Below, one piece after another: positions 59,501 to 64,000 of a stretch of 64,000 bases of DNA. Position numbers and translations under genes: made by a program. Source of the stretch: Liolophura sinensis (Eukaryota; Mollusca; Polyplacophora; Chitonida; Chitonidae); NCBI RefSeq assembly GCF_032854445.1, contig NC_088300.1:26703608-26767607 (forward strand), in the 5' to 3' direction. Each line of letters begins with the position of its first letter. The first letter of the stretch is position 1. A model generated the notes under the pieces. It saw only the letters and a list, made by a program, of their open reading frames with translations. It was not told the DNA's origin and ran no database searches.

Positions 59501-62500
59501 AACACATGTACAACTAGCTCTGAATCTTCAGATACTTTAGCCCTAATGGTGAGAGCTACCACAACATCTACCACAACATCAAACAGGCCTATGATGGAAC
59601 AATTTTTATTCCACATAATTTTAAGCTTACAAAACATTATTTAATGAAAACCCATTAGTAGGAATTTTCTCTGTATGACACACATGTGTACGCAAGCCTA
59701 CAAAGTCCTACCCTAAACTTTTGATCGGGGCCAACTGTCTGGCACAGGAGAAAACTGCCATGTAAATAACATTATAAACTATTCAATTATGTGAATAGCT
59801 GGAAGATTTGCTAGTATGTCCTGCACCAAGATAAAAATTATTTCCAGTCTTCACACACTATCAACATCATATACTGGGTTCCCACCAATTAAAGAAAATG
59901 TTTTTCATGGAATTCTAAGGACATAATAATCTACGTTTCTCCACACTTTAAAGGACCATTCAACTTAATTATAAACCTTCATTAATGGATGTTTTTTGGC
60001 AGCTATCTATAGGTCTATTTAGAACATTTGGCAAAATATTTAAAACTGAAAAATGAAACGCTTTTAAGAACTATTTAATAAACGATTTTTCAAGGACTTT
60101 CAAACCTGTTCACAAATTCAACTGTGCTTTAAGGGTTTCAAAGACCACCTGGACCATAGTTACAAAGTGATGTCCCTGATGGAGTCAAAATTCCAAACAA
60201 GTTTTCATGAAATAAGGCCCTAAGATTAATTCAAAATTGCATTGTAATCTAAAAGTGTACAGCGTAAGAACTTGAGTGTTAAAGGACATCATCACTGTCC
60301 TCATCATCACAGGCCTGTTACACAACAGCTAGTCTTGACTCACTGGATAGGGATTGATTACCATATCTCCTTGAACCTGAGGGTTGCCCAGGGCCAAATT
60401 CTGTATCCTCGTCCAGGCATCTTCTCTCTGTTTTAACCTCTCCTTTTCCCTGGTCAAAAAAGTAGATGATGTGTTAAACAGCAAAACACAACTACAACTT
60501 CTTATGTCTTTCTGAAGGTGTTACAATATTTGAGACTGAGATTCTATCTCCACCTTCCATCTCATATAACATTGACTGAATTTAGGCATTTGTTATCTGA
60601 TGACAGATGAGTTTGGATATCACTTCAGAAAATCAAAATAATTTGTAAAAAAGTTAAGATGTTGCTGAACATAATAATAAATTACTCTATTTGCTAAAAA
60701 AAATTGCCTCAACCAAACTTTAAACATAAACTTACATCTATCCACCTGGATATGATTTCACCCTTAAAACACCTTTCTAAGATCACAAGAACTCTCAGAA
60801 TCAGGCCAATTCATTAACTTGGTCATGCATGAAATTTGAGGTCGAGTACAGTACTACATTTAAGGAAATCAGATGATCACACTTCATCTTACTTTTGCTT
60901 TTCTGCCTTGTACTGCTGTGTGCAGTCATCAAACAGTTTCTGATTCATCTCCATAAACAGCTTTAAGGCATTGTATATGAGCCCATGGATAGTCCTGAAA
61001 CCCAACGCAGTTTTGAATCATGGATTTAACACTACTATCACACAGGTAACATATCAACACAACAGAAGATGTGATCAACACTACTCAATATTTATGGCCT
61101 GAAATCATGTAGGTTTGAGTCAATACTCAAGAGTTTTGTGGGAGAAATATGCACAATTCAGGTTCTGAAGAATGTCTGTTACAAAAATGTGCTCTTTGTG
61201 TAGTGGTTTTGACCATTTGTGCTACTATGTCATTTCAACTAACACAATCAGCTCTACAAGTTTCAAAATGAAGAACGATCTGTTCCTTTATAGCTTGCAA
61301 TCAATTTAATATGAGTTCACTAAAGTTCTCCCTCAGGCCATCTGCTTATTTTCAACTCTTTCCAGGATTATGATTGCTTACAATGGACATTATTGGCAAA
61401 ATACAAACAATACATTGTTAGGCAAAAACTACTGGGAGGGCTGCATGCAACTGAACAGCTTTGCAATGTGATTTAAAACAGGCTGAATGGCCAAATCATG
61501 TGCACCCATATGCAATAGATTAGATTTAACTTGTGTATTATTCCACAGATGTGAGGATAGTGCCACCGGCATGAAAGTTACACACACGCACAAAATAAAT
61601 AATTTTATAATAGTACAGAAAAATTAAGAGCAGAAACAATCGTGTATGAAAGAAACTTTTAACCTATACTCATTGCGATCTTAAGTTGTAAAACAGAAAA
61701 ATAGCAAGTTGTTCTATTAAACATTCTAATAAACTGGGCAAATATTCAGGCTTTATACTGTAAAAGATTCAGGCAAGTGCAGCAAAGTGATATACACATA
61801 CAGAGACCCACCACATCTAGCCATGCAAGCCACTTTCCAGAGAGTTCACTTACATATTATTGCAATATGTATACACCCACTTTTCCAGCATGAAGAGACT
61901 GTGCCGACATAGGGATGACCCTGCCACAGTTTTAAAATGGTATGGGGTTTGGGGTGAAGACAGAAACTAATCTCTTCATTTCCTGTACACCTTGACGACC
62001 AATCGACAAAATTAAAATGCCCATACACCATGTCCTGTCAATGCAGCATTGAGGTATACACACATGTTTTCCCTACAGCTTTTTCCCTTCATAACCCCAC
62101 TCCCTTCCATAACCATAGCTAAAATTCAACATTTTAGTCTTGTATATGCATCTTTGCCCCAAATTGGACATTAAATATTCTGGTATCAAAGCACAGTTTA
62201 CATGTTTGATTTTCACATGTGTTTAATACGTGATCTTTATGGTGTTTACACTATACAAGGTTGTACAAATGAAGAGTTTAGATACTGAAATATAGAGCTA
62301 GAGGGCTACACATGGCTACTGGGTGCAGATACTTCTGATCTGGTCACTACACAATACTGGGGAGGTGACTTCAGGAGTGGTTATCTACAGACATGAGCAG
62401 CTCTACCGTATTACTGAGAGATAGCTGCACCGGCCCTACAACCACATGGGGGCATCAGTTAAGGAGGCTTACTTGTTCCAATGTTCTTTGCTCTTATACA

Positions 62501-64000
62501 AAGCTGGAAATATGACAGGCAGAAGTACGGTGGCATTTTCACTGATCAAACTCAAGATGTACTCATTATTCCAATAATATAGTGCCCTCTCTGCGACCTG
62601 ATCAAAGGAAAACAATATAAAACAAGAGGCATAGTAATAAGAGTGAAACAAAGGTGGCACAAAAACATTGTCAGCATGTCAACATTGGTCAGTACCACTC
62701 ACCTGTCAACGGTGAGCACAAGTGCAAGACAGTGAGGAGAGGGGTTTTCCAACAAGTACATGTATCAACACAGTGAAGTGATAACAGTGTTGATGCGTCA
62801 ACAGCAGCAAACTGGCCAGAGAGCACATCAGACCACGATCAGAACCACTGATTTTAATAGGATCAAACGATCTATTAAAATGCACAAGACACCTGGAGCT
62901 CTCAGTGCAAGATGACATGATCTCTGGCCAGTGCAGGGTATTAAGTGGGAGAGAAACATAACACACGAGTTGATAGTGCCGGTCTTACTTGTTCCAGTGC
63001 TGCTTTGTTTTATACAGAGCTGGGAACATGATTGGGAGTATGACAGTTACATTTTCACTGATCAGACTAAGGATGTATTCATTGTTCCAGTAGTACAGGG
63101 CCCGCTCTGCCACCTGTAAACAGCAGTTATTTATTAATTCAGTTATGTGTTATCATCATACTCAAAGATGTTTCACACATGTGATGACTGTCAGGTTTAC
63201 AGTTGGAAACTACATCACTTCATCACAAGCCTGTAGAATAGGCGCTTGAGATTTATGAGAACACCCCATTGATGAAAGTGGTATGACCCCAAGTAAACTT
63301 GATATAATACAACATGAATAAAATGGGTCTTGCTACTTTTCCAAAGGGGTGTTTTCAAAAATCTCCAGCACCCACATGTACATGTTATACATGTTCCTGA
63401 CAGGACCCCTGACATAAAGCTGCACACCATTTCAGCAAATATGTCGCTAACTTTACCGTCGTTATGTAATAAATTGGAAGACAATCTCTTTGTGGATTAA
63501 TGGTTTACTGATGCAATACTCAAGAATTTTCCACTTACATCTGTGTGATGTGTCAATTTAATGGGGAGGGGAGGAAACTGGAGTGAATGGAGCAAATTAC
63601 CAAACTTTGCCACATTACTCACACACTTTCCAACACGCCACAAAGACTTACAAGCGATATTTGAGGAAACCATTTGGTCATGAGATAAAAAGAAATAAAT
63701 CCCAAGACACTAAGCTGAACACTTACGATCACCGAGCATCTTCAAGGATAAGCATTCCTCAGTGTTTATATTATCATGTAACTCAATCTCACAACATGTA
63801 TCTGTCAGATTACAGTTTTACACATTCTTTGAAATATTAAAGAAATCTTGAAGTTCACATTAAATACACAACAAAGGCACCTACCTGGAAATGTGGACTT
63901 GATACACACTTGGCTAGCTGTTTGAACAATGGGCACATCACCTTCAGGAACTCAGCTGGCTCTATCACATCTAAAATTTCTTCTAACTCATTTAAAAACA
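56503..64000 (-). CDS. PPP2R5: PP2A B56 regulatory subunit, gamma/delta type (3' half; 5' end outside window)
   Basis: Minus-strand exons: 64000-63885 (partial), 63113-62989 or 62597-62473 (alternatives), 60994-60893, 60449-60362, 59042-58896 and 56640-56503 (TGA). All boundaries are AG/GT and phases agree. The product has the diagnostic B56 strings [62 protein letters not shown] and, at the C-terminus, [19 protein letters not shown], which resembles the gamma/delta (PPP2R5C/D) tail. B56 is a HEAT-like scaffold-binding subunit that targets the PP2A phosphatase to LxxIxE substrates. The [14 protein letters not shown] stretch is a likely nuclear-localisation and phosphorylation region. The segment PHPDVIAGT to [10 protein letters not shown], in exon 59042-58896, is less conserved. 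One SINE lies in the last intron. Confidence 0.93.
58566..58760 (-). mobile_element. SINE family A, 5'-truncated, in last PPP2R5 intron
   Basis: TTTATTTAATTGGTGTTTTA, CGCCATACTCAAGAATATTT, CGGCGGCCAGCATTAGGGTG, then to ACTTGAACTCACAGCGACTG. The outer part of the tRNA-like head is missing. It is in the same orientation as the host gene. Confidence 0.8.
62473..62597 (-). CDS. PPP2R5: PPP2R5 alternative exon b (125 nt)
   Basis: Starts after acceptor TTTGATCAG in phase 0 and ends AAC AA|GTAAGC in phase 2. It encodes the same segment as exon a with conservative changes (V to A, I to L, I to V, M to I, T to S, Q to E). Third codon positions differ widely, indicating an old duplication under purifying selection. 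Confidence 0.9.
62989..63113 (-). CDS. PPP2R5: PPP2R5 alternative exon a (125 nt)
   Basis: Starts after acceptor TTTACAG in phase 0 and ends AAC AA|GTAAGA in phase 2. It encodes [20 protein letters not shown], then [21 protein letters not shown], which is part of the B56 repeat array. It is one of two equal-length copies 391 bp apart. It is the upstream copy in transcription order. Confidence 0.9.
63490..63590 (-). mobile_element. Highly degenerate SINE family A fragment
   Basis: GGTTTACTGATGCAATACTC, AAGAATTTTCCACTTACAT and GGGGAGGGGAGGAAACTGG follow the family-A order weakly. A similar trace occurs near 63150-63180. Low confidence. Confidence 0.35.

What the first reader, a model, noticed from the sequence alone, without database searches (positions are those of the whole stretch)
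62473..63113. Candidate mutually exclusive exon pair in a PP2A B56 subunit gene
Two tandem exons of exactly 125 nt, with matching phases (0 in, 2 out) and good splice sites, encode alternative versions of the same B56 segment. Because 125 is not a multiple of 3, including both or neither breaks the frame, so exactly one must be used per transcript. The peptides differ by about six conservative changes while synonymous sites are heavily diverged, which suggests old duplication with both copies kept under selection. Vertebrate PPP2R5 genes, as far as I know, have a single exon here. It could tune PP2A substrate or scaffold binding by tissue or stage.
Basis: partly seen in the sequence, partly recalled or inferred. 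Interest (0 to 1): 0.82.

Follow-up and report, generated by a model that had tools for sequence, protein, structure and literature searches.

The report
Chiton phosphatase gene with alternative twin exons
In what is very probably a chiton, a gene for a widely conserved protein-phosphatase subunit carries two side-by-side versions of one exon, both kept by selection and arranged so that a working message can hold only one, which probably gives the animal two slightly different forms of the enzyme.

Summary
Observation confirmed. Exon A (63113-62989, minus) and exon B (62597-62473, minus) are each 125 nt, phase 0 in and 2 out, AG/GT-bordered, in an intact B56 (PPP2R5 gamma/delta-type) core. They share 95 of 125 bases and 35 of 41 residues; synonymous sites are saturated (pS 0.89) while pN is 0.077. 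A-only and B-only messages stay open; both or neither meets an early stop. The genome search found three copies: A, B and an unduplicated paralog; a haplotype artefact is excluded. Assembly statistics match the chiton Liolophura sinensis. Both copies lack a codon that the paralog and four human B56 proteins have, so one duplication after that loss is simplest. Changes are reciprocal: A keeps the family's LPIMF helix core, B the usual loop residues. Docking-type RNA pairing, by a simple score, is within shuffles. Exon B has the longest AG-free zone of 14 acceptors (98 nt), an ideal branch heptamer at -92, and a near-perfect CAG|GTGAGT just upstream: a possible distant-branch-point or decoy mechanism against A-to-B joining (hypothesis, seen after the fact). 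No RNA reads and no other species could be examined. New member of a known kind.

The parts
62989..63113 (-). Exon A (upstream alternative), 125 nt, [41 protein letters not shown](K)
   Evidence: AG/GT borders, open in gene frame, B56 homology; purifying selection against B
62473..62597 (-). Exon B (downstream alternative), 125 nt, [41 protein letters not shown](K)
62598..62988 (-). 391-nt intron between A and B
62600..62697 (-). 98-nt AG-free zone upstream of exon B's acceptor
   Evidence: largest of 14 acceptors measured: 11 of this gene (other ten 19-55 nt), 3 of the paralog (18, 19, 36 nt)
62688..62694 (-). Predicted distant branch point TACTGAC (A at 62689, -92 from exon B); further candidates with A at 62679 (-82, lower score) and 62671 (-74, equal score)
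   Evidence: matrix from memory; UACUGAC is called the ideal heptamer in PMC1431707 (passage). Prediction only
62697..62705 (-). CAG|GTGAGT: near-perfect 5' splice site directly after an AG, candidate decoy or ratchet point; its GT is 13 nt upstream of the predicted branch A
   Evidence: 12.37 bits, highest between exon 8 and exon 10; 9-mers of that strength 3 times in 141,402 strand-bases, this one included
62811..62932 (-). Strong RNA hairpin in the A-B intron
   Evidence: inverted repeat I2; stretch 62805-62940 folds at -51.1 kcal/mol, z -4.79, 0 of 200 shuffles as good; no other copy found in the genome
63885..64000 (-). Preceding exon (begins at 64004, beyond the window), ends ...SSPHFQ
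60893..60994 (-). Following exon, (K)[33 protein letters not shown]..
60362..60449 (-). Next exon, [24 protein letters not shown]...; its 3' end is approximate

Best explanation
This is a tandem-duplicated internal exon pair spliced in a mutually exclusive way in the gamma/delta-type PPP2R5 (PP2A B56) gene of a chiton. Shown from sequence: two intact, selected copies; one-of-two is the only arrangement that keeps the frame; a single duplication fits best. Established knowledge: messages with both or neither copy carry early stops and should be removed by nonsense-mediated decay. Inferred: a regulated choice makes two B56 proteins that differ only in one helix core and the loop after it, next to the region reported to interact with the catalytic subunit, so the isoforms probably differ in holoenzyme assembly or stability rather than in the LxxIxE docking pocket (pocket position and helix limits recalled). 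Also inferred, with much less certainty: exon B uses a distant branch point, and an adjacent CAG|GTGAGT decoy or ratchet site hinders A-to-B joining.
For: Exon anatomy and phases. Stops in double-inclusion and double-skipping products. pS 0.89 against pN 0.077; 0 of 20,000 random trials had 6 or fewer residue changes. Spliced 237-residue pieces of both isoforms score as Pfam B56 (394 and 392 bits). Only A, B and a single-copy paralog found in the genome. Shared one-codon loss and reciprocal changes. Long AG-free zone, ideal branch heptamer and CAG|GTGAGT. AG-free zones of 100 nt or more go with higher observed alternative splicing in human exons (PMC1431707, passages); this one is 98 nt.
Against: No transcript reads were seen, so inclusion of either exon is unproven. 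The splicing-mechanism part was found by looking after the fact: the longest AG gap alone is not unusual (shuffle P 0.23); only the pair of gaps (0.011) and the AG-poor tail (0.009) are. The predicted branch points lie 299-317 nt from exon A's own donor, which rules out the simple OGDH type of steric block. The synonymous test rests on only about 25 sites. No other species could be compared.
Confidence: 0.85

Rival explanations
1. One exon is the working copy and the other is a poison (decay) exon, included only to lower gene output through nonsense-mediated decay.
For: Including both shifts the frame and gives a stop.
Against: Both copies hold a full B56 peptide with pN 0.077 against saturated pS; a poison exon needs no conserved peptide, and either copy alone gives an open frame.
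Confidence: 0.07
2. One copy is always skipped: a relic with no present use.
For: No RNA evidence was available here; exon A's pyrimidine tract is weak (53%, second lowest of 11 acceptors of the gene).
Against: Saturated synonymous divergence without a stop, frameshift or splice-site loss; donors of A and B score equally (8.03 bits).
Confidence: 0.05
3. Assembly artefact: two haplotypes placed in tandem.
For: The published assembly reports 1.24% heterozygosity (PMC11068029, passage).
Against: The copies are only 76% identical and the similarity ends 3-5 nt outside the exons; both lie on one 82-Mb scaffold.
Confidence: 0.01
4. Mutual exclusion is enforced by competing RNA docking and selector pairings, as in insect Dscam (this rival concerns only the means of exclusion).
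For: A very stable hairpin sits in the A-B intron (z -4.79).
Against: Best upstream-middle, middle-downstream and upstream-downstream pairings are matched by 32, 14 and 54 of 100 shuffles; pairing over the A and B acceptors by 49 and 113 of 300 (simple ungapped score; the thermodynamic version did not finish). A hairpin inside one intron is not a docking system.
Confidence: 0.07

Closest known systems
Mutually exclusive tandem-duplicated exons (for example OGDH exons 4a/4b, PMC7969005; voltage-gated channels, PMC9741552; passages seen; alpha-tropomyosin recalled)
   Same: Adjacent homologous exons of equal length and phase; a length not divisible by three allows only one-of-two; short intervening intron
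   Different: Located in the conserved core of a PP2A B56 gene; no such case in the listings (some lists were capped) or in the passages read
OGDH 4a/4b distant-branch-point organisation (PMC7969005, passages)
   Same: AG-free zone and predicted distant branch points before the downstream exon
   Different: In human OGDH the branch points lie 25-41 nt from the upstream donor and so block it directly; here they lie 299-317 nt away, with a separate CAG|GTGAGT 13-31 nt upstream of them
PPP2R5C/PPP2R5D (B56 gamma/delta)
   Same: Same family and subtype; best PDB matches for exon B plus the next exon are delta, then gamma
   Different: Isoform variation described for B56gamma in PMC2257934 is at the 5' and 3' variable ends, not in the core (passages)

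Membership tests
PP2A B56 (PPP2R5) family | Pfam B56 domain above the curated cut-off | tested here: met
   237-aa spliced pieces of both isoforms 394 and 392 bits against a cut-off of 25
PP2A B56 (PPP2R5) family | gamma/delta subtype | tested here: met
   Exon B plus next exon: delta 140 and gamma about 136 bits, alpha 105, epsilon 100; the other genomic copy is of the epsilon/alpha type. No tree was built
Mutually exclusive tandem exons | Two adjacent homologous exons of matching phase with good splice sites | tested here: met
Mutually exclusive tandem exons | Only one-of-two keeps the frame | tested here: met
Mutually exclusive tandem exons | Both copies under purifying selection | tested here: met
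Mutually exclusive tandem exons | Transcripts contain one or the other, never both | not testable with these tools
   No RNA reads; tissue RNA-seq exists for the likely species (PMC11068029 Table 1, passage)
Tropomyosin/OGDH-type steric exclusion | Branch point within about 50 nt of the upstream exon's donor | tested here: not met
   Predicted branch points 299-317 nt from exon A's donor
Distant-branch-point exon | Unusually long AG exclusion zone with a good branch heptamer near its 5' end | tested here: inconclusive
   98 nt, longest of 14, and TACTGAC at -92; just under the 100-nt class used for human exons; use of the branch point not shown
Dscam-type docking/selector exclusion | Long-range complementary sites beyond chance | tested here: not met
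   simple ungapped score
Recursive (ratchet) splice site | Pyrimidine-rich tract, YAG directly followed by a strong GT donor | tested here: inconclusive
   CAG|GTGAGT with a 107-nt AG-free stretch before it; no intermediate or lariat reads

The most novel reading that the evidence does not exclude
The A-B intron holds a ratchet point (CAG|GTGAGT at 62705-62697). When exon A's donor is joined to it, a donor is rebuilt only 13-31 nt from exon B's branch points, too close for the spliceosome to use, so an A-containing message must skip B. Mutual exclusion would be enforced by a recursive or decoy splice step, a route that differs from the steric, frame-only and docking-structure routes known to me.
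Probability: 0.15. Interest if true: 0.7.

Novelty: new member of a known kind. Interest (0 to 1): 0.45.

Why it matters
PP2A-B56 specificity is usually thought (general knowledge; PMC2257934 passages) to come from choosing among several B56 genes and from their variable ends. Here the conserved core itself would be switchable by splicing, in an animal in which two B56 genes were found. The exon begins with the glutamate equivalent to human B56delta E420, whose change to lysine is disease-related and lowers catalytic subunit in pull-downs (PMC7952134, passages). A natural, selected pair of variants of the stretch that follows it would show which changes this part tolerates. The A-B intron also gives a compact test of how exclusion is enforced when the branch point is not close to the upstream donor.

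Tried and rejected
Haplotype or assembly duplication: rejected (76% identity, similarity confined to the exons, same scaffold). A third copy of the exon: none by translated search of the gene region and paralog or among the genome matches. A hidden coding exon of 109 nt ending at CAG|GTGAGT: two of its three frames hold stops, its length (remainder 1) breaks the reading frame if used with A or B alone, and it has no visible B56 likeness; at most a decay exon. Competing RNA docking sites and acceptor-covering hairpins: within shuffles by a simple ungapped score (RNA duplex computation timed out); the region around A's acceptor folds no better than shuffles (z -0.17). The whole A-B intron folds only slightly better than shuffles (z -1.42). 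The inverted repeat in the exon 8-A intron (63241-63372) belongs to a dispersed repeat (14 further hits, two of them overlapping), so it is not taken as regulatory. The A-B hairpin as a transposable-element copy: no second copy found, but the DNA search can miss common words. Relatives in prokaryote genome contigs and viral contigs: 105 and 72 pattern hits, none confirmed; these collections are not expected to hold animals. Other molluscs could not be searched. RBFOX-like TGCATG: two in the 1,478-nt B-to-exon-10 intron, none in the other two introns; too few to use. Structure prediction was not run, because the rule admits only proteins read letter for letter from held DNA and this one is spliced.

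Weight matrices for donors and branch points are generic values from memory, so the scores rank sites within this gene only. The position of the LxxIxE pocket outside this exon is recalled; the attempt to check it failed.

Full report
Observation. Each is bordered by AG and GT and is read from phase 0 to phase 2. They share 95 of 125 bases. Of the 30 differences, 21 fall at third codon positions. Thirty-five of 41 residues are the same; the six changes are V/A, I/L, I/V, M/I, T/S and Q/E.

Gene. I took the upstream part of the gene from the window's own assembly and modelled ten core exons plus A and B (the end of the last exon is approximate, and the N-terminal and C-terminal exons were not modelled). 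The A-only and B-only products are open and read as a B56 core. Pieces of 237 residues from both score 394 and 392 bits for Pfam B56. Solved-structure matches place the segment with human B56delta and gamma. Including both exons gives a stop after 14 shifted residues, inside B; skipping both gives a stop after 21 shifted residues, inside the next exon. By established knowledge such messages are decay targets.

Genome and paralog. The assembly has 609,464,459 bases in 632 contigs. The published genome of the chiton Liolophura, first named L. japonica and later corrected to L. sinensis, has 609,495,693 bp and 632 scaffolds (PMC11068029, passages; PMC12441733, whole text). The species is therefore inferred, not proven. 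A translated search with exon B's peptide finds three places: A, B and a paralog 21 Mb away on the same scaffold (gaps and withheld stretches read N, so absence elsewhere is not proven). The Pfam B56 search gives 20 matches, all 20 in this gene or that paralog. The paralog is closest to human epsilon and alpha, has one copy of the segment, and has it fused with the next exon.

Age and selection. Synonymous differences are saturated (pS 0.89 over about 25 sites, so no distance can be computed) while pN is 0.077. In 20,000 random trials with the same number of changes none had as few as six residue changes (smallest 12), and only 33% were free of stops. So both copies have been held as coding sequence for a long time. 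The age in years cannot be given.

Order of events and pattern of change. Compared with the paralog and human alpha, gamma, delta and epsilon, both A and B lack one codon in the loop before HWN (5 of 5 others have it; human beta was not compared). One loss followed by one duplication is simplest. All six A/B differences lie in residues 22-38 (chance 0.009 if all 41 sites were equally free; the first half is nearly invariant in the proteins compared, so this is partly expected). At LPIMF, A has the residues found in 5 of 5 others and B has LPVIF. At the loop, B has the serine of 5 of 5 others where A has threonine, and the glutamate of 3 of 5 where A has glutamine. The copies have therefore diverged in complementary places. 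Overall identity to each of the five others is nearly equal for A and B (31-35 of 42).

What the segment does. The exon starts with V418-A419-E420 of human B56delta. E420K is disease-related and lowers catalytic subunit in pull-downs (PMC7952134, passages); it is reported in 7% of individuals with the PPP2R5D disorder and lies in a region said to interact with the catalytic subunit (PMC12148737, passage). A and B both keep this glutamate. The changes lie in the stretch after it, so I infer an effect on assembly or stability rather than on substrate docking. No structure was computed.

Splicing anatomy. Donors of A and B score the same (8.03 bits). Exon B's acceptor has a 98-nt AG-free zone, the longest of 14 acceptors measured, with the heptamer TACTGAC at -92 and further candidates at -82 and -74. 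In a human data set of 67,334 exons, zones of 80 nt or more are given for 2,264 cases and of 100 nt or more for 838; the latter go with more observed alternative splicing, but the authors estimate that only one half to one fifth of them mark distant branch points (PMC1431707, passages). Just upstream of the zone stands CAG|GTGAGT, the strongest donor-like site between exon 8 and exon 10 (12.37 bits); 9-mers of that strength occur 3 times in 141,402 strand-bases looked at, this one included. It follows its own 107-nt AG-free stretch, like a ratchet point. Dinucleotide shuffles give 0.23 for the longest AG gap, 0.011 for the two longest together and 0.009 for so few AGs in the last 213 nt. These tests were chosen after seeing the sequence. 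The predicted branch points lie 299-317 nt from exon A's donor, beyond the roughly 50-nt steric limit used for OGDH (PMC7969005, passages), so plain steric exclusion does not apply; with the CAG|GTGAGT as donor the distance would be 13-31 nt. A 122-nt hairpin in the same intron is far more stable than shuffles (z -4.79; segment chosen after the fact; the whole intron only z -1.42) and was found once in the genome. Long-range pairings that could act as docking sites are within shuffles by a simple ungapped score.

Known or new. Papers holding PPP2R5, B56 or wdb together with mutually exclusive splicing, or tandem exon duplication with molluscs, were searched: 15 of 15, 20 of 31, 20 of 48, 1 of 1 and 8 of 18 papers were listed. 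From these listings and selected passages, none reports such a pair in a B56 gene. Main texts of two human surveys, one review and one insect study do not name PPP2R5, PP2A or wdb as far as those terms were asked; supplements were not read. One Drosophila paper reports a splicing change in wdb, a B56 gene, on signalling, but the passages do not give its kind (PMC2687788). The Drosophila survey of 2013 is not held. Insect and other mollusc annotations could not be checked, so priority is not established.

Verdict. The finding is real and most likely a functional mutually exclusive exon pair in a chiton B56 gene. It is a new member of a known kind, with a speculative but testable proposal for how exclusion is enforced.

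Noticed in passing
window 45777-46976 (+): Single-exon open frame of 399 aa (stop to stop) matching galactose-3-O-sulfotransferase (PF06990, 150.9 bits).
   Followed up: partly
window 42466-42554, 44993-45081, 58569-58657: Three copies of an 89-nt interspersed repeat; the outer two are 62% and 82% identical to the middle one.
   Followed up: no
window 63241-63372: Inverted repeat in the exon 8-A intron that is part of a dispersed repeat with 14 further hits in the genome, two of them overlapping.
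   Followed up: partly
G000 contigs C99 and C632: C99 looks like a head-to-tail assembly of the mitochondrial genome: COX1 at seven places about 15.5 kb apart; an eighth on C632.
   Followed up: no
window 61827 and 61449 (-), B-to-exon-10 intron: Two TGCATG (RBFOX-like, recalled) motifs, none in the two introns upstream.
   Followed up: no
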